DNA of 64,000 nucleotides. Source: a virus. Position 1 is the first letter of the stretch, and every line of letters begins with the position of its first letter. The translations under genes and the position numbers were made by a program. Under the pieces are notes generated by a model that did no database searches, was not told where the DNA came from, and worked only from the letters and a program-made list of their open reading frames with translations. Below are positions 3,804 to 54,159 of this stretch, in pieces. Location of the stretch: positions 25,365 through 89,364 of IMG/VR virus record IMGVR_UViG_3300041411_000074. One strand, given 5' to 3'.

Positions 3804-3824
3804 ACGTCCCACATTGTGGGACGT
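3804..3824. repeat. perfect inverted repeat (hairpin)
   Basis: Nine-base arms ACGTCCCAC/GTGGGACGT flank a 3-base ATT loop, just beyond the 3' end of the minus-strand early block. There is no T-tract on either side. It could be a weak terminator, an RNA-stabilising 3' end or a protein-binding site. Confidence 0.7.
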
Positions 3825-4996: not shown

Positions 4997-5025
4997 ATTA
5001 TCTCTATTTCTGTCCGTAGCTGCAA
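4997..5025 (-). promoter_or_regulatory. sigma70-type promoter
   Basis: Minus strand: TTGCAG (5025-5020), 17 bases, GATAAT (5002-4997), preceded by A-rich AAAATAAAGC. It is 40 bases upstream of the gene starting at 4955. Between here and the small gene at 5280 I see only the composite module at 5123-5160 and very short frames (a 24-codon GTG frame near 5071 is the longest). Confidence 0.75.
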
Positions 5026-5122
5026 GCTTTATTTTCATATATTTCAAAAGAATTTATAGCTGCTTTTCTATCAGGCACAATCCCTGTTTGTCTCGTGTCT
5101 TTGCTTACTCACCATGGAGATT

Positions 5123-5160
5123 ATTCTACAGGCAAACAAAAGCCAGCACAATAGGCTGGC
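5123..5160 (-). promoter_or_regulatory. composite terminator-promoter module
   Basis: Minus strand: hairpin GCCAGC (5160-5155), 7-base loop, GCTGGC (5147-5142), then TTTTGTTT, a classical terminator. The -35-like TTGTGC (5151-5146) spans loop and right arm and is followed by 17 bases, including the T-tract, and TAGAAT (5128-5123). It ends one transcript and could start another. No clear gene begins right after it; the downstream gene may be lost. Confidence 0.6.
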
Positions 5161-5460: not shown

Positions 5461-6114
5461 TTAATAATAGATTAATTCATTAGAGCGGTCAACAACTGTT
5501 TCATCTATTTTTGAGTAGTTTTCATATCGTTCAATCAGAGCTTTTGCTACACGTTTATCTGATTGGCTGTCTGCCAATACGTGTGCTTGATCCAGCTTGA
5601 AAGCCAACCATACTTTGTGTGCCGTATCGGGAGAATCAAACCACCCTAGATTGGTCTGTTTGCCCGTTGTCACTGAGACACACTGAGCCCTATACCTGCT
5701 GGCCTTTTTGTCCCAAGAGACACCTGTAGGCAGTTCTTGCGTGTTGTTAGATCTTTCTAATATAAATAAATTTATTCTCTGTTCAATAAATAAGCATGTC
5801 TCAGGGCTATAAACTTTATTGTCTTTAACTAACAAGTCTTTATCTAGCTGCTTCCCTTGCCAATCCTGTTCTTCCATCCAAGCTTTGAATTTCGAGAAAT
5901 AGAGCCATTCATCACAAACCGAACAGTCTGCATATGTACTGAAGCTAGAGTGGTAAACTTCGGAGTAAGCCCTTTTTAACATGGCACGCCATCTTTCATA
6001 AAATGGGCAGAACCAAGTTTGGAATTGTTTTCCATCAACCATTTTGTTTTGTGTTAAAGAATAGTCCGCATCATTAATACCAACACCGCACACTAGTTTG
6101 TTTCTTTTACGCAT
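5461..6114 (-). CDS. HNH/AP2 homing-type endonuclease
   Basis: A 217-aa member of a paralogous family that recurs at 8854, 10205, 12361, 27273 and (more distantly) 36404. Hallmarks: GVGINDADY near residues 10-18; a W-x-x-ML-x-R-x-Y helix (42-50); W-x-x-F-x-x-F-x-x-WM (70-80); LDKDLL...DNKVYSPETCLF with N114, the HNH-like core in which the usual first His is Asp; and an AP2-like DNA-binding domain (about 128-172, GVSWDKKASRYRAQC, LGWFDSPDTAHKVW). Such proteins nick or cut DNA and spread their own genes. ATG follows GGAGAA. It lies right behind a terminator, as do two paralogues. Confidence 0.8.
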   Translation of the reverse strand: MRKRNKLVCGVGINDADYSLTQNKMVDGKQFQTWFCPFYERWRAMLKRAYSEVYHSSFSTYADCSVCDEWLYFSKFKAWMEEQDWQGKQLDKDLLVKDNKVYSPETCLFIEQRINLFILERSNNTQELPTGVSWDKKASRYRAQCVSVTTGKQTNLGWFDSPDTAHKVWLAFKLDQAHVLADSQSDKRVAKALIERYENYSKIDETVVDRSNELIYY

Positions 6115-8853: not shown

Positions 8854-9537
8854 TCAGACGGACTTAACTTCTGTCCTCTTGTTAGCATTTAATCGCAGAT
8901 TGGCAGCCCTGTCAAGCAATTTTTCTGCAACAAGCAAAGAGAAATTCTCCGCTTCGCCAGCCAGTCGCCACTTTTCAATTGCGGCTTCAATTTGCACAGC
9001 CTTAGCCATACACCATGCTTGATGAGCAGTTAGAGGATCTTGAAACACGCCAAGGTAGCGTTTACCTTCACCTTGAACTCTGGCTACGTACCGATCACTG
9101 TATCCGCTGACAAAAGTTACACCAAGGGGCAGATCTACTAGGCTTTTGTTGTTAGATGACACTAACATATTTATATAGTTTGGAACAAAGCAGCAGGTGT
9201 TAGGGCCATATTCTTTGTTACCTTTAATAAGTATATCTTTGTCTATCTCCAAACCTTCCCAAATCTGAACTTCCATCCAAGCCTTGAATGCGCTAAAGTA
9301 TTTCCAAACGATGTTTACAGTTGTTCCCTCAAGCACAGGTCTTTTAGAAAGCGTATTCTTGCTATAACCTCTTTTGACCATAGCGCTCCACTTCCTATAG
9401 AATGGACACATCACAGATTTATTTCCAACACGTATAGATACTTTGTAATCCGCATCATTGATACCCCATCCAGATACAGTTGGAAATTCTTTAGGTTTGT
9501 TTAAACCCCTATTTCTTGTGTACTTTGTTTTAGACAT
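8854..9537 (-). CDS. HNH/AP2 homing-type endonuclease
   Basis: A 227-aa paralogue of the genes at 5461 and 10205. It has GWGINDADY (N-terminal block), F-x-AF-x-AWM, IDKDILIKGNKEYGPNTCCF with downstream N (HNH-like core), and an AP2-like domain (LPLGVTFVSGYSDRYVARV, YLGVFQDPLTAHQAW). Its start overlaps the upstream gene by 8 bases. Its last 25 codons contain a complete promoter (8887-8915) that must serve the genes from 8806 on. The reading frame thus runs through pre-existing control DNA. Confidence 0.8.
   Translation of the reverse strand: MSKTKYTRNRGLNKPKEFPTVSGWGINDADYKVSIRVGNKSVMCPFYRKWSAMVKRGYSKNTLSKRPVLEGTTVNIVWKYFSAFKAWMEVQIWEGLEIDKDILIKGNKEYGPNTCCFVPNYINMLVSSNNKSLVDLPLGVTFVSGYSDRYVARVQGEGKRYLGVFQDPLTAHQAWCMAKAVQIEAAIEKWRLAGEAENFSLLVAEKLLDRAANLRLNANKRTEVKSV
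8887..8915 (-). promoter_or_regulatory. sigma70-type promoter inside an endonuclease gene
   Basis: Minus strand: TTGACA (8915-8910), 17 bases, TTAAAT (8892-8887), with the upstream AAAAATTGC context also seen at 13987-14015. It lies within the 3' coding end of the HNH/AP2 gene. Confidence 0.7.
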
Positions 9538-10179: not shown

Positions 10180-10215
10180 ATTCTAACCCAACGAAAACAG
10201 GCCGTCAAGCGGCCT
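10180..10215 (-). promoter_or_regulatory. composite terminator-promoter module
   Basis: Minus strand: hairpin AGGCCG/CGGCCT (10215-10210 and 10204-10199) with a 5-base loop, then TGTTTT. The -35 TTGACG (10208-10203) covers the loop and the first base of the right arm. Seventeen bases on is TAGAAT (10185-10180). On the plus strand the hairpin is followed by TTTT. The TGA of the upstream HNH/AP2 gene (10207-10205) lies inside the -35 box. The 17-bp hairpin is identical to that at 19748-19764. Confidence 0.8.
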
Positions 10216-10861
10216 TTTCAATATAAGTAAAGTTTTCATATTTATCAATTAACGCTTTAGCTACACGTTCATCTGTTTGTTGTGCTGCGAGTACATAGGC
10301 TTGCTCCAGTTTAAACGTAAGCCATGCTTGGTGAGCTTCTTCTGGTGTCTTGAAGTGGCCTAAAACTTTTACCTTCCCTGTGACAACAGAACTGCACGTT
10401 GCCACATACTTACCTCTACTCTTGTCGAAACAAACACCAATAGGCCACTCACCACGATCTGCTGCCCGCTCAATTATGAATGAGTTAACTCTAGCGTCTA
10501 CGAAGACGCAAGTATCAGGACCGTAGATCTTATTGCCCGGAAAGAGGATATCTTTATCCAGCTGTTTACCTTCCCAATCTTGAAGCTCCATCCAAGATTT
10601 GAAGTTGCTGAATGTTAGCCATTCTCTCACCACAGAGCAACCTTTATAACTTGGATACTTTGACTGGTAGTTTTCACTATAACACCTCGTCAACATACTC
10701 ATCCACCTACCATAGAACGGACATACCCATACAAGCTTTCGTTTTTTACCGCCTAGGTAACCGATTGTCTTGAACACTTGTACAACATAATCAGCATCGT
10801 TAATACCAACACCGCGCACTAGCTTAGTTCTCTGGTAGCTCTTCAACTTTCTCTTCTCCAT
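10205..10861 (-). CDS. HNH/AP2 homing-type endonuclease
   Basis: A 218-aa close paralogue of 5461-6114. It has GVGINDADY, CPFYGRWMSMLTRCYSENY, W-x-x-FSNF-x-SWM, LDKDILFPGNKIYGPDTCVF with VN following, and an AP2-like region (PIGVCFDKSRGKYVATC; LGHFKTPEEAHQAW). The C-terminal residues EKAA are encoded by the left arm of the hairpin at 10199-10215 and the stop falls in a -35 box. The gene therefore abuts, and partly consists of, control DNA. It is preceded by a terminator at 10869-10886. Confidence 0.8.
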   Translation of the reverse strand: MEKRKLKSYQRTKLVRGVGINDADYVVQVFKTIGYLGGKKRKLVWVCPFYGRWMSMLTRCYSENYQSKYPSYKGCSVVREWLTFSNFKSWMELQDWEGKQLDKDILFPGNKIYGPDTCVFVDARVNSFIIERAADRGEWPIGVCFDKSRGKYVATCSSVVTGKVKVLGHFKTPEEAHQAWLTFKLEQAYVLAAQQTDERVAKALIDKYENFTYIEKAA

Positions 10862-10906: not shown

Positions 10907-11107
10907 CTAAAACTTCTTACAACACCGTCCACACTTACTGCATTGAGTAGTCCCACAGCAAGCCAAGATTAGGATATAAGGAACAATCCACAACAAGCCT
11001 GTAAGCAACACCAACACGATGTTAACCAGATGCCCACCAGCAGACAACCCTTTAGTGATACCAATTTGAACACCACACGATGGACACTTACACATTGACA
11101 TGCTCAT
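10907..11107 (-). CDS. LITAF-like small membrane zinc-ribbon protein (66 aa)
   Basis: ATG 11107 is chosen for GGAGG upstream. The layout is CKCPSCG (residues 6-12), a hydrophobic segment (28-51, VNIVLVLLTGLLWIVPYILI), then CSKCGRCC (56-63). Two CxxC knuckles flanking a membrane-embedded hydrophobic stretch is the arrangement of LITAF-type domains, which sit on the cytoplasmic membrane face. A role at the inner membrane is inferred. Last gene of a five-gene coupled unit, followed by a terminator. Confidence 0.65.
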   Translation of the reverse strand: MSMSMCKCPSCGVQIGITKGLSAGGHLVNIVLVLLTGLLWIVPYILILACCGTTQCSKCGRCCKKF

Positions 11108-11108
11108 A

Positions 11109-11261
11109 TCACACCTCCAATACACTGATGAACAACGCATCAGGCCAATCAAGGTTAGCGATCACACGAGCGCCTTCATGACTCGTAGCTTCAATATCCA
11201 GGAAGAACTCACCGCTTGAGTCAAGCATTTTTACTTTGAATGTACGAGTATAACTTTTCAC
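11109..11261 (-). CDS. small hypothetical protein (50 aa)
   Basis: Not recognised. GTG start with GAGG upstream and a GTGA overlap with the preceding stop. Predicted beta-alpha-beta (YTRTFKVKMLD; FFLDIEATSHEGARVIANL), the pattern of small phage proteins with one helix packed on strands. Confidence 0.6.
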   Translation of the reverse strand: MKSYTRTFKVKMLDSSGEFFLDIEATSHEGARVIANLDWPDALFISVLEV

Positions 11262-12360: not shown

Positions 12361-13176
12361 TCAAACCTTCTCTGTATATCTGTAGTTGTCATAGTCTTCT
12401 TGGATCACTTGCCACTTGGCCGCAAGTGGTTCCCGAAGCTCTTCAAGGAATTCAGGGCTTTCGTAGTAGATTCCAATTTCAGTCTTGAGGTGCTCTATCT
12501 TAGCCAACTGCCAAAACCTGTGTGCTTCCATTGGGTCTGATGCCCTGCCCAGTATAGTGGTTACATCACCCCTCTTTATGCTTGCAACGTAAGTGCCCAC
12601 GCCGCTTTTCTTCACACCCATACCATGAGCAGACCTTACAGAAAACTTATCAAGAAACAAATTGTTAATTCTCACAGGTACTGCACGGCAAAATTCGGGT
12701 CCATATTCTTTGTTACCGAAGACTAGTAAGTCCTTGTCAATTCTAAAGTCATCGCTCGGGCAATTGCTGTAGTACCATGCACAATAATTCTGTAAGTTAT
12801 GCCACAAAGGATTCACATAGACACCTTTAGCACCATAGTCTGAGTACGCTTTGTGTCCCGTGTCGTAACACCTACGGATCATGTTTGCCCACCTCTTATA
12901 TGCTGTGTGTTGGTTTCCATCTTTTCCCGTTGTTGAGTATGGTCCAACCCCGCGATATCCAATACCAAGAACCGTCTTTGCTAGTGGGTCTTCAACCTTA
13001 CCCCTGATAGCAGCACTGGCCCTAGTCGTCACAAATGAGCCAGTATTAATAAACCTAACCTTGATGTCAAAGCAACCATCAGCAGATATTATTTCATACG
13101 GTCCTGATACACCTCTAGCCTCAAAGATGTCGCCGACCTTGTACTTTCTAACTTGTCCATCTGGTATTTTACGCAC
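12361..13176 (-). CDS. HNH/AP2 homing-type endonuclease with extra N-terminal module
   Basis: A 271-aa member of the same family, GTG start after AGGAAGA. It carries one N-terminal beta module of about 55 residues (YKVGDIFEARGVSGPYEI, V-x-F-x-x-TG) that the 27273-28355 protein has in three copies. Then a W-x-x-MI-x-RCY helix, IDKDLLVFGNKEYGPEFCRA with N, and an AP2-like end (GVKKSGVGTYVASI, LGRASDPMEAHRFW). Preceded by the terminator at 13196-13216 and immediately followed by a promoter. Confidence 0.75.
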   Translation of the reverse strand: MRKIPDGQVRKYKVGDIFEARGVSGPYEIISADGCFDIKVRFINTGSFVTTRASAAIRGKVEDPLAKTVLGIGYRGVGPYSTTGKDGNQHTAYKRWANMIRRCYDTGHKAYSDYGAKGVYVNPLWHNLQNYCAWYYSNCPSDDFRIDKDLLVFGNKEYGPEFCRAVPVRINNLFLDKFSVRSAHGMGVKKSGVGTYVASIKRGDVTTILGRASDPMEAHRFWQLAKIEHLKTEIGIYYESPEFLEELREPLAAKWQVIQEDYDNYRYTEKV

Positions 13177-14905: not shown

Positions 14906-15129
14906 TGGTTCAGCTCCTGCCTCTCGACGATAGGCTCGATCTTCCCAAGACAATCACGCTTCGATTCGGGCCATGTTCTGACGACCTCGGCGCATTGCTT
15001 GCAGTGTTCGGCAAGCGTTGGCTCGGCGGCAGGGGCAGCGAGGAGGAGTCGAAGTTCTTGGAATGCTGACATATCAGCCGCTGCCAGCCTCTCCGCAAGC
15101 TCTTGCGTGATTTCAAATTTACTGCTCAT
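14902..15129 (-). CDS. hypothetical protein (75 aa), GC-rich
   Basis: Not recognised. Helical and Ala/Leu/Glu-rich (MSSKFEITQELAERLAAADM; LLLAAPAAEPTLAEHC), with a CKQC pair. Its DNA is clearly more GC-rich than the surroundings (strings such as GGCGGCAGGGGCAGCGAGGA), which suggests recent acquisition. A second frame at 14910-15116 is a shadow. Overlaps both neighbours by 4 bases. Confidence 0.7.
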   Translation of the reverse strand: MSSKFEITQELAERLAAADMSAFQELRLLLAAPAAEPTLAEHCKQCAEVVRTWPESKRDCLGKIEPIVERQELNQ

Positions 15130-15383
15130 TCGCTTGCTCCCGATTCGGTGGGCTTGAGGGCTGCGTCGATCAATTCACCCAAATAATCGTTCGGTCTATC
15201 GCAGCGATTGCGAGCCCGCCCAAGCAGGTTTTCCAATTTCTTATTCCGCTGCTCAGCGGCTGTAAGGCGCTGAATCAGATCAAGTCTTTCGTTCAGACCA
15301 TCCATGTAAATTTCATTGATACCGTCCAGCTCTTCCCGCAGCCCAGACAGTTGATCTTTCAATAATTTATTTTCAATTTCCAC
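15126..15383 (-). CDS. coiled-coil protein (85 aa), GC-rich
   Basis: Not recognised. GTG 15383 has AGGAG seven bases upstream; the in-frame ATG 15404 has none, so it is the less likely start. A long heptad-like helix spans residues 1-65 (LLKDQLSGLREELDGINEI; ERLDLIQRLTAAEQRNKKL). Shares the elevated GC content of the next gene. Confidence 0.65.
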   Translation of the reverse strand: MEIENKLLKDQLSGLREELDGINEIYMDGLNERLDLIQRLTAAEQRNKKLENLLGRARNRCDRPNDYLGELIDAALKPTESGASE

Positions 15384-18806: not shown

Positions 18807-19303
18807 TTCTCGTTCTCCAATTCATCAATCTTATCACTCAACGAGAGCAACCGACTTTCAATGTACTCTTTCTGAGACAACAAGTCGTTATATTCTTTCA
18901 CATACTTCTTCAGCACTGCTGCATTACTAACCTCATTCCCTTTAGGTTTAGCCCACTTCTTCGTACACTGATACCCTACAAACACAATGCCTTCGTAATC
19001 ATCTTTAGCATATTCATGCACAAATTCATAGTCATTCAGGTTGCAGATGAATTCTAAATCAAATCTTCCAACATCAATGTATTTAGAATATTCACGAGCC
19101 AACCCTTCGTGTGTGAAAATGTTTGTGTCTTCTTTGCCATCTTTGAAAGGCCAGTAGTTGTACGTGTCGATTAGGACAATATCACCGTGATCGTCTGTGC
19201 GAGCTACGCAGCGACGATCACGACACCAATAAGGGTCTGATGAAGGGCCGAGGTTAGGTTTCCAACTGTATGAAAAGTAATCACCATCTTTAATTTCTTT
19301 CAT
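18803..19303 (-). CDS. hypothetical protein (166 aa)
   Basis: Not recognised. Tyr/Asp-rich N-terminal 120 residues (DPYWCRDRRCVARTDDHGD; IDTYNYWPFKDG), then a coiled-coil helix at the C-terminus (DLLSQKEYIESRLLSLSDKI). 4-base overlaps at both ends. Confidence 0.7.
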   Translation of the reverse strand: MKEIKDGDYFSYSWKPNLGPSSDPYWCRDRRCVARTDDHGDIVLIDTYNYWPFKDGKEDTNIFTHEGLAREYSKYIDVGRFDLEFICNLNDYEFVHEYAKDDYEGIVFVGYQCTKKWAKPKGNEVSNAAVLKKYVKEYNDLLSQKEYIESRLLSLSDKIDELENEK

Positions 19304-19695
19304 TTCATCTCTCCCAAACGTTCATTGATACGTTGACGACTAATTTCAATAGCTTCTTGTGTAGGAACATAATCTCCAAACCACCAGTTATTGATTCCTT
19401 CAATCAAACTGTCTTTTTCAATAGGATTTACTTTATATCCACGACTGACAGCTTCATTGCACAGAGAGTAATACCTCTTGGTGATGAAGTCAAGCTTATC
19501 ATACAGAAACAAAACATGACCTGTACCCATTGTGTAAGCTGATGGCTGCTTGATCTTATCTTTGAAATTGTACTTGTTAATCTTACGAGCTTGTGCTTTG
19601 CGGACTAGACCAAAGACACGAGTGATCTCATGCAATTCTCCGAGCAAGTGCTTATTGTGCAATTCAGATGGTGCGATAACATTGATTCTTGTCAT
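19300..19695 (-). CDS. denV: pyrimidine-dimer DNA glycosylase / AP lyase (T4 endonuclease V family)
   Basis: DenV cuts the glycosyl bond of UV-induced cyclobutane dimers and then the backbone. The 131-aa product has MTRINV at the start, fixing ATG 19695, because Thr2 is the catalytic amine after Met removal. The catalytic Glu is at 23, with Arg3 and Arg26 also in place. Downstream family blocks RVFGLVRK, MGTGHVLFLYDKLDF and RGDYVP-like FGDYVPTQEAIEISRQR are all present. Normal family length is about 138. It is the first gene after the composite promoter at 19729-19764 and heads a long operon of tiny genes. Confidence 0.92.
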   Translation of the reverse strand: MTRINVIAPSELHNKHLLGELHEITRVFGLVRKAQARKINKYNFKDKIKQPSAYTMGTGHVLFLYDKLDFITKRYYSLCNEAVSRGYKVNPIEKDSLIEGINNWWFGDYVPTQEAIEISRQRINERLGEMK

Positions 19696-19728
19696 GACAA
19701 AGCTTCTGTGTGAGTAGCTGATGTGAGA

Positions 19729-19764
19729 ATCATACAGACAAAAGAAAAGGCCGTCAAGCGGCCT
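19729..19764 (-). promoter_or_regulatory. composite terminator-promoter module
   Basis: Minus strand: hairpin AGGCCG, loop CTTGA, CGGCCT (19764-19748), then TTTTCTTTT, a textbook terminator for the 20012/20242 transcript. TTGACG (19757-19752) in the loop/right arm, 17 bases including the T-tract, and TATGAT (19734-19729) form the denV promoter. The 17-bp hairpin is identical to 10199-10215. Confidence 0.85.
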
Positions 19765-27272: not shown

Positions 27273-28355
27273 ATGGCAATTAAGTATTTAGAAATTGGCC
27301 AAGTATTAGAAAATAAACAAGGTGAGAAGTATGTAATTGAAGGTCTTGACCACTGTAAATCAGTTAAGGTTAGATTCCTCTCTAATAATTCTGTAAAATA
27401 CACTACTGCAAATTATGCTTATCGTGGCATCGTCCGCATGGAAAGGGTTCTTGTCGGTGAACAATATTTGGATAAGAATGGGGAAACAATTACTGTAGTT
27501 GGCAAGACTAAACAAGATGATATTACAATCCAATGGGATGATGGCGAAACGCGCTCGACAAATGCCTATAGGATTGAGAATAGGCTTGTGATTCGGACCA
27601 ATGACAATAAGCATGTTAATCCAACCGTAAAAGTTGGGCAAATATACGTTAATCGCCAAGGTTCAGAAATCAAGGTTCTTGAATACGAAAATTCAACCAA
27701 GATTTTAGTGGAGATTGGCGAAAGAAAGTACCAGCAATATGTACACGCAGGGAATCTGATATCACTAAATGTACATGACAAGTATGCACCATCTGTTGCA
27801 GGTAAAGGTATTTTTGGAGATGCAGAAGTTGATGTCAAATCTCAAGTCTATACTTCTTGGGCTGGGATGTTAAAACGCTGCTATACTTTTTATGATGATA
27901 AACCAAGGGCAAGAATCAACTATGAAGGCTGTGAAGTCAGGGAAGATTTTCTGTATCTTCCAGATTACATGGCTTGGTATGAGAAACAAATTGTTCAGCC
28001 AAAGTGGCATCTTGACAAAGATCTTTTGGTTCCCGGTAATAAGATCTACAGCCCCGATACGTGTGTGTTTTTACCAAGAGCTTTGAATACGTTCTTAACA
28101 GTCAGGGGTAATGAACGCGGACCATATCCAATCGGCGTTACTTACCATGAACGTCTAGGGAAATATGAGGCTTGCTGTAATCGGGATGGTAAGAGTGTTT
28201 ATCTTGGGCTTTATTTAAATCCTGAAGATGCCTTTGAAGCTTACAAGAAAGAGAAGGAATCTTACGCGAAAGATCTTGCAAAGCGTTGGGAAGGGGTGAT
28301 AGACTCTCGGGCTTGTGAAGCACTGATGAATTATAGGGTTTTAATTACCGATTAG
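27273..28355 (+). CDS. HNH/AP2 homing-type endonuclease with three N-terminal modules
   Basis: A 360-aa protein. Residues 1-165 are three related beta modules of about 50 aa, each starting VG-x-x-Y/L-x-x-K/R-x-G (YLEIGQVLENKQGEKYVI; VLVGEQYLDKNGETITVV; VKVGQIYVNRQGSEIKVL). The catalytic part follows: W-x-GMLKRCY, V-x-x-DFLYLPDYMAWY, LDKDLLVPGNKIYSPDTCVF with LN, then an AP2-like domain (PIGVTYHERLGKYEAC; LGLYLNPEDAFEAY). It begins directly after the helicase stop and is the only gene between helicase and polymerase, a typical homing-gene position. Confidence 0.8.
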   Translation: MAIKYLEIGQVLENKQGEKYVIEGLDHCKSVKVRFLSNNSVKYTTANYAYRGIVRMERVLVGEQYLDKNGETITVVGKTKQDDITIQWDDGETRSTNAYRIENRLVIRTNDNKHVNPTVKVGQIYVNRQGSEIKVLEYENSTKILVEIGERKYQQYVHAGNLISLNVHDKYAPSVAGKGIFGDAEVDVKSQVYTSWAGMLKRCYTFYDDKPRARINYEGCEVREDFLYLPDYMAWYEKQIVQPKWHLDKDLLVPGNKIYSPDTCVFLPRALNTFLTVRGNERGPYPIGVTYHERLGKYEACCNRDGKSVYLGLYLNPEDAFEAYKKEKESYAKDLAKRWEGVIDSRACEALMNYRVLITD

Positions 28356-53369: not shown

Positions 53370-54159
53370 TTTCCCTTGCCTGTCTTAGTGGATCAGTGTC
53401 TTTAGGTGCATTACTTCCAGCATCAGGTCCATCTACATCTTGAGGAGTGCTGTCCTGTTTACCTTTTGATGCTTTAGGGGCTGCTTTCTTTTTAAGAGAT
53501 TCCTGTACATCTTTTGGGATTGTGGTCTTCTTCAAGAAAGCAAAAGTCACTTGCTCAAAGGTGATATCACAATACAAACCATACCCTGTATTTGCATCTT
53601 CCTTAAAAGTAATCTTGGTCATTACAAGATTATTGATTACTTTACGAAGCAGAGTATTATCGTATTCAAACAAGCGGACAAGTTGAATGCTAGGATCGAA
53701 TTGACCAGTCTTCTCGTTGAAGATAACGCCAGCGGTGAGGTCTACCAGAGCCTGACGAATCTGCTCTATAAGATCAGTACGTCTTGCGTCAACAACTACT
53801 TCAGGTGTACTATCGGATAGGAACTGACCAATGCTATCAGGAATAAATTTCTTTAGTACACTTTGGTCAGTAGAATTCACACTGACAGCATTAGGAGCTT
53901 CATTACTATTATAGGGAGAGTTACCATCCAAATCTTGGATTAGGTAAGTTCCTGTAGAGATATCTACACCCGTAATCACAGCACCAATTGTAAAAACTGG
54001 GTTACTTTTGATGTAGTGATCAGTGATATTTCCACCTAAAGCGACGGGATGTTTGGTTACTTGTCCGCTGTAGTTTTGTGTATAGCTTGTTACAGCATCA
54101 CAGTAGATCAGTCCCCCCTCTTGTACAGAGGAGTCACCCCAAGAAATTGCTAATGACAC
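53362..54159 (-). CDS. tail/baseplate hub protein (265 aa)
   Basis: Not identified beyond position. A beta-rich N-terminal 200 residues (AISWGDSSVQEGGLIYCDAV; NPVFTIGAVITGVDISTGTY) and a polar, Lys/Pro/Asp-rich tail (KKKAAPKASKGKQDS; PDAGSNAPKDTD). Between the tape measure and the plug gene, where the tape-measure-proximal hub proteins of contractile phages lie. Confidence 0.65.
   Translation of the reverse strand: MSLAISWGDSSVQEGGLIYCDAVTSYTQNYSGQVTKHPVALGGNITDHYIKSNPVFTIGAVITGVDISTGTYLIQDLDGNSPYNSNEAPNAVSVNSTDQSVLKKFIPDSIGQFLSDSTPEVVVDARRTDLIEQIRQALVDLTAGVIFNEKTGQFDPSIQLVRLFEYDNTLLRKVINNLVMTKITFKEDANTGYGLYCDITFEQVTFAFLKKTTIPKDVQESLKKKAAPKASKGKQDSTPQDVDGPDAGSNAPKDTDPLRQARENG

What the first reader, a model, noticed from the sequence alone, without database searches (positions are those of the whole stretch)
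19729..19764. Terminator hairpin whose loop carries the next promoter's -35 box
On the minus strand a 6-bp GC hairpin (AGGCCG/CGGCCT) plus TTTTCTTTT ends the upstream transcript. TTGACG sits in its loop and right arm, and the T-tract forms part of the 17-bp spacer before TATGAT. The 36 bases act as terminator and promoter at once, insulating adjacent early units in minimal DNA. The same 17-bp hairpin recurs at 10199-10215, and an unrelated hairpin with the same design is at 5123-5160. I do not know of a described phage element of exactly this form.
Basis: partly seen in the sequence, partly recalled or inferred. Interest (0 to 1): 0.75.

Follow-up and report, generated by a model that had tools for sequence, protein, structure and literature searches.

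The report
Phage promoter nested inside a terminator
In this virus of bacteria a 36-base piece of DNA appears to stop one gene's message and start the next one's at the same spot; the same trick recurs with different sequences in its relatives and in unrelated phages, and closely resembles a promoter-terminator cassette already described in T4-like phages.

Summary
At 19729-19764 (-) a T-tailed hairpin has TTGACG in its loop and right arm, then a 17-bp spacer (mostly the T-tract) and TATGAT. The same 17-bp hairpin is at 10199-10215, and a different hairpin of the same design at 5123-5160. Chance is excluded: the early region holds 4 such composites against 0.065 per shuffle. Across the window and 11 relatives, 23 of 82 T-tailed hairpins carry TTGAC; all 18 distinct ones have a -10-like hexamer at exactly 17 bp and at no other spacing consistently, although stems differ. 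At the denV site the hairpin is identical in eight phages while genes on both sides are swapped, so it sits at module boundaries. Best reading: a compact terminator/early-promoter cassette that works like the PeSLs (promoter-early stem-loops) of T4-like phages. It has precedents: nt-1, a PeSL phage, has terminator hairpins holding TTGACA, RB49 has a -35 in a terminator's right arm, and an unrelated 167-kb phage carries about ten copies. New are the lineage (relatives of Pseudomonas phage vB_PsaM_M1, not T4-like) and the loop-nested -35. Promoter and terminator activity are inferred, not measured.

The parts
19748..19764 (-). site 1 terminator hairpin AGGCCG-CTTGA-CGGCCT
   Evidence: identical in the denV-site cassettes of 8 phages including this one
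19739..19748 (-). site 1 T-tract (TTTTCTTTTG), also part of the 17-bp promoter spacer
19752..19757 (-). site 1 -35 TTGACG, TTGA in the loop and CG in the right arm
19729..19734 (-). site 1 -10 TATGAT
   Evidence: TATGAT/TATTAT/TATTGT in relatives at the same place
19696..19728 (-). conserved leader (TCTCACATCAGC...CACAGAAGC) ending at the denV start
   Evidence: mean identity 85% among 8 phages while the following gene differs
19300..19695 (-). denV-like pyrimidine-dimer glycosylase, downstream gene of site 1 (start at 19695, not 19809 as in the longest ORF)
   Evidence: phrog_1183 E 4e-39; 91-94% identical relatives start there
10199..10215 (-). site 2 terminator hairpin, same 17-mer; contains the TGA stop (10207-10205) of the HNH gene
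10203..10208 (-). site 2 -35 TTGACG
10180..10185 (-). site 2 -10 TAGAAT
   Evidence: same in relatives L034, L036
5142..5160 (-). site 3 hairpin GCCAGC-CTATTGT-GCTGGC with T-rich tail
   Evidence: homologous copy in relative L031
5146..5151 (-). site 3 -35-like TTGTGC (weak, 3 of 6)
5123..5128 (-). site 3 -10 TAGAAT

Best explanation
A compact composite terminator/early-promoter cassette that works like the PeSLs of T4-like phages. In RNA from the upstream early unit the GC stem forms and RNA polymerase stops in the T-tract. In double-stranded DNA the loop and right-arm bases are read by host sigma-70 as the -35, the T-tract doubles as the spacer, and the next unit starts about 6-8 bases after the -10. 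Because terminator, promoter and leader travel as one piece of about 75 bp, any gene placed behind it becomes its own early unit; cassettes therefore also serve as short homologies or neutral junctions at which early genes are swapped. Shown here: the anatomy, the fixed 17-bp spacing, stem variation with the -35 kept, and gene swaps exactly at the cassette. Inferred: real termination and initiation, use of host sigma-70, and homologous recombination as the cause of the swaps.
For: Hairpins chosen only by stem, T-tail and presence of TTGAC: 18 of 18 distinct ones have a -10-like hexamer (at least 4 of 6; 15 with at least 5) at spacer 17, while other spacers have 0-7. Shuffled sequences give 10-20 such hairpins and none with TTGAC. 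Stems differ (AGGCCG/CGGCCT, GCCCCG/CGGGGC, AGCCCC/GGGGCT, AAAGAGCG/CGCTCTTT, AGGAGCC/GGCTCCT, AGCCATC/GATGGCT, AGCTCTC/GAGGGCT) with TTGAC kept; own left arms pair in 16 of 67 promoter-like sites against 3.5 with left arms swapped. At the denV site eight phages share 100% of the 17-bp hairpin and 94% of the spacer/-10, but flanking 150-nt blocks are at background identity (0.59) in most pairs; L032 and L035 share 99% upstream yet have different genes downstream. In G011 the same denV start is preceded by a different stem, AAAGCCCTC/GAGGGCTTT, again with TTGACT in the loop and TAAAAT at 17. About ten copies in an unrelated 167-kb phage. Where the neighbouring ORFs could be called, upstream stop codons usually lie 5-23 nt before the hairpin and downstream starts about 70-77 nt after its first base.
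Against: No transcript data. Site 3 has a poor -35. Many other early promoters of these phages have no overlapping hairpin, so the design is optional. M1, the nearest named relative (68% in DNA polymerase), has none. The 5-6 bp stems with a 5-nt loop are modest terminators.
Confidence: 0.82

Rival explanations
1. Promoter only: the inverted repeat around the -35 is a DNA operator for a phage or host regulator, not an RNA terminator.
For: Inverted repeats around -35 boxes are classic operator positions (general knowledge).
Against: Stem sequence differs from site to site within one genome, which a single operator would not allow; each stem is GC-rich, followed directly by a T-rich tract and preceded by a co-directional gene end.
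Confidence: 0.07
2. Terminator only: TTGAC in the loop and the TANNAT are chance or composition.
For: Terminators of this shape are common; site 3 has a weak -35.
Against: 18 of 18 TTGAC hairpins have the -10 at exactly 17 bp; shuffles give none.
Confidence: 0.04
3. The cassette is kept mainly as a recombination site or homing-endonuclease target; transcription functions are secondary.
For: Cassette identical while both flanks are swapped; HNH genes (phrog_953) abundant nearby and one ends inside site 2.
Against: Other cassettes at the same kind of junction have different stems but keep stem pairing and the 17-bp promoter geometry, which recombination alone does not require.
Confidence: 0.07

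Closest known systems
PeSLs (promoter-early stem-loops) of T4-like phages: RB49/phi1 and PST/nt-1 (Arbiol et al. 2010, 10.1093/gbe/evq006; Comeau et al. 2014, 10.1093/gbe/evu129)
   Same: Sigma-70-like early promoter fused to a terminator stem-loop between small variable genes, several per genome, gene exchange at the cassette. nt-1 has AAAGGG-TTGACA-TATG-TGTCAGCCCTTT-TTTG-TATTCT; RB49 has AAGCCAATCCGAAAAGGGTTGGCTT-TTTCGTTTTATGATGA-TATGAT with the -35 in the right arm and the T-tract in the spacer.
   Different: Here the phage is not T4-like, the -35 lies mostly in the hairpin loop, and many RB49 cassettes have other geometries (terminator then promoter, or a hairpin over the -10). The two PeSL papers could not be read here.
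Overlapping terminator and promoter annotated in Pseudomonas phage phiPMW (KU862660, terminator 15066-15109, promoter 15093-15142)
   Same: Predicted sigma-70 promoter overlapping a predicted rho-independent terminator between co-directional small genes.
   Different: The loop reads TTAATT rather than TTGAC, and it is an annotation without experiment.
Composite cassettes in other phages: IMG/VR 2706795891_000001 (167,619 bp), Serratia phage BF, Vibrio phage Bakedbeans
   Same: AAAGCCCCTTGACAGGGGCTTT...TAGAAT with 17-bp spacing, about 10 copies in the first; BF one in the 10 kb read; Bakedbeans TTGACGGCCTTTTCTTTTATCTGTATGAT differs from site 1 by one base from the -35 to the -10.
   Different: Unrelated genomes. 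In Bakedbeans TTGACG is entirely in the right arm of a 13-bp stem.

Membership tests
PeSL (T4-like phages) | Composite of a sigma-70-like early promoter and a terminator-like stem-loop | tested here: met
   sequence level only:
PeSL (T4-like phages) | Located between small variable genes in plastic early regions | tested here: met
PeSL (T4-like phages) | Genes exchanged with breakpoints at the cassette | tested here: met
PeSL (T4-like phages) | Several similar copies per genome able to recombine | tested here: inconclusive
   two identical 17-mers in the window and in the record of L034; homology beyond the hairpin is limited
PeSL (T4-like phages) | Carried by a T4-like myovirus | tested here: not met
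   nearest named relative is Pseudomonas phage vB_PsaM_M1, filed under Ounavirinae; polymerase is phrog_17 / DNA polymerase I-like
PeSL (T4-like phages) | Stem-loop shown to terminate transcription; promoter shown active | not testable with these tools
   needs Term-seq/Cappable-seq or reporters
Intrinsic terminator | GC-rich stem followed directly by a T-rich tract | tested here: met
Sigma-70 promoter | -35 and -10 hexamers 16-18 bp apart | tested here: met
   10 of 12 consensus matches at sites 1 and 2; site 3 weaker

The most novel reading that the evidence does not exclude
The nested geometry is selected because it hands polymerase over: after releasing the upstream RNA in the T-tract, the polymerase is already sitting on the next promoter's spacer and can rebind sigma and restart there, as post-termination recycling in vitro suggests (PMC6978380). 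Unrelated phages have converged on it as a relay of early units.
Probability: 0.12. Interest if true: 0.75.

Novelty: new variant of a known kind. Interest (0 to 1): 0.42.

Why it matters
It shows that PeSL-like composite cassettes are not a T4 peculiarity: the same design, with different stem sequences, occurs in a lineage related to Pseudomonas phage M1 and in other phages, and marks the points where early genes are swapped. That gives a sequence rule (T-tailed hairpin with TTGAC inside and TANNAT 17 bp on) for finding early-unit boundaries in unannotated phages, and a ready template for testing whether a terminator can feed polymerase to the promoter nested in it.

Tried and rejected
A near-identity search of 12 kb of the window in phages found no close named genome. 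Two scripts had a loop bug that dropped hairpins; corrected versions are and the conclusions did not change. The composite-like hit on the + strand at 3805-3823 is a near-perfect palindrome at the end of the convergent early operon, conserved there in relatives with other sequences; judged to be a bidirectional terminator. The two PeSL papers are not in the held library. Searches for other described overlapping terminator-promoter elements in phages found nothing. No Rfam family in the window. M1 has no such cassette even with long loops allowed.

Full report
What is there. The window is 64 kb of an 89,364-bp virus record. Sheath, tape measure, major head protein, NrdA, primase/helicase and a DNA polymerase I-like gene mark it as a myovirus; the nearest named genome by DNA polymerase is Pseudomonas phage vB_PsaM_M1 (89,387 bp, 68% identity), filed under Ounavirinae. 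The minus strand between about 3.8 and 23 kb carries many small genes and is taken to be the early region (inference, from gene layout).

Site 1 (19729-19764, -): AGGCCG CTTGA CGGCCT then TTTCTTTTGTCTG then TATGAT, with TTGACG and TATGAT 17 bp apart. It lies between a small ORF and denV, whose real start is 19695. Site 2 (10180-10215, -) has the same 17-mer, a different T-rich tail and TAGAAT; the TGA of the upstream HNH gene is part of its -35. Site 3 (5123-5160, -) has another stem, a weak -35 (TTGTGC) and TAGAAT at 17 bp. RNA folds are 2.8-4.0 sd better than shuffles. In 200 shuffles of the early 20 kb the composite scan never gave more than one; the real region gives four, one of which I reject as a promoter.

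Relatives. An exact scan for the 17-mer in IMG/VR returned 17 stretches; 11 of them, in 10 contigs of this phage group, continue with a T-rich tract and a -10-like hexamer at 17 bp, while the other six do not and are chance or unrelated. Early regions of 11 related records were then read. Selecting hairpins by stem, T-tail and presence of TTGAC only, the -10 hexamer appears at 17 bp in 18 of 18 distinct cases (at least 4 of 6 matches; 15 with at least 5), and at other spacings in 0 to 7; shuffled sequences gave 10-20 hairpins and no TTGAC. The stems are of many sequences, the loop keeps TTGAC. Among 67 distinct promoter-like sites, 16 pair with their own left arm and on average 3.5 with a swapped one. 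In G011 the orthologous denV promoter has a wholly different stem with TTGACT in a 17-nt loop and TAAAAT at 17 bp. Two constraints, pairing and promoter geometry, are therefore kept together while sequence changes.

Module boundary. At the denV-type cassette of eight phages the 17-bp hairpin is identical in all, the spacer and -10 94% and the leader 85% identical, while 150 nt upstream and downstream are mostly at the level of unrelated sequence (0.59). Seven different upstream sequences and three downstream genes (denV, an MNIFV... gene, an MNLLN... gene) occur; L032 and L035 share 99% upstream and nothing downstream. A second family has the same upstream gene followed by different stems and different downstream genes. 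Where the neighbouring ORFs could be called, upstream stop codons lie usually 5-23 nt before the hairpin and downstream starts about 70-77 nt after its first base.

How it probably works. In RNA the stem and U-tract end the upstream transcript; in DNA the same bases serve as -35 and spacer for host sigma-70. The result is a short, self-contained junction behind which any gene becomes a new early unit. Shown: anatomy, spacing, variation of stems, gene swaps. Inferred: activity of both halves, host sigma-70, recombination as the cause of swaps.

What is known. T4-like phages have promoter-early stem-loops (PeSLs), described as composite conserved promoter-terminator motifs that mediate gene shuffling (titles and one summary sentence in PMC4503421; the original papers are not held; what I say of their content beyond that, including which phages were used, is from memory). 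The public genomes of two phages used in that work were examined. RB49 has three geometries, including a terminator whose right arm is the -35 and whose T-tract is the spacer, at 53585-53609. nt-1 repeats AAAGGGTTGACA...TGTCAGCCCTTT-TTTG-TATNNT, a terminator with the -35 in its left arm. phiPMW is annotated with an overlapping terminator and promoter. An unrelated 167-kb phage, distantly like Stenotrophomonas phage DLP6 by its DNA ligase, has about ten loop-nested copies. So the design is not without precedent. It works like a PeSL; by the feature 'carried by a T4-like phage' it is not one in the strict sense. I call it a new variant of a known kind.

Noticed in passing
window 3805-3823: Near-perfect palindrome CGTCCCACATTGTGGGACG at the end of the minus-strand early operon, followed on the + strand by TTATAAT...CCTGCTAGAAT; relatives have other palindromes at the same place with a similar TATAAT...CCTGCT tail. 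Probably a bidirectional terminator.
   Followed up: partly
window 5000-5122, minus strand; L031 about 11050-11150, minus strand: After site 3 about 100 nt of conserved non-coding sequence (CTCCATGGTGAGTAAGCAAAGACACGAGACAA...AAAGCAGCTATAAATTCTTTTGAAA) precedes the next start codon; it may be a structured leader or small RNA. No Rfam match.
   Followed up: no
window 8854-9537, 10205-10861, 12361-13176, 5461-6114 (-), 27273-28355 (+): At least five HNH endonuclease genes of one family (phrog_953) spread through the window, one ending inside the site 2 cassette.
   Followed up: no
G012 (IMGVR_UViG_2706795891_000001), e.g. L219 8060, 9004, 15118: About ten copies of AAAGCCCCTTGACAGGGGCTTT...TAGAAT in one 167-kb phage, the densest use of the nested design seen.
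   Followed up: partly
L026/L029 (RB49) early intergenic regions: A common RB49 geometry places a hairpin over the -10 box (for example GGGAGTATGCTATAATACTCCC), so the promoter core itself sits in an inverted repeat.
   Followed up: no
L213 3001-3029 (Vibrio phage Bakedbeans): 28 of 29 bases from the -35 to the -10 match site 1, in an unrelated phage, but the left arm of the hairpin is different.
   Followed up: partly
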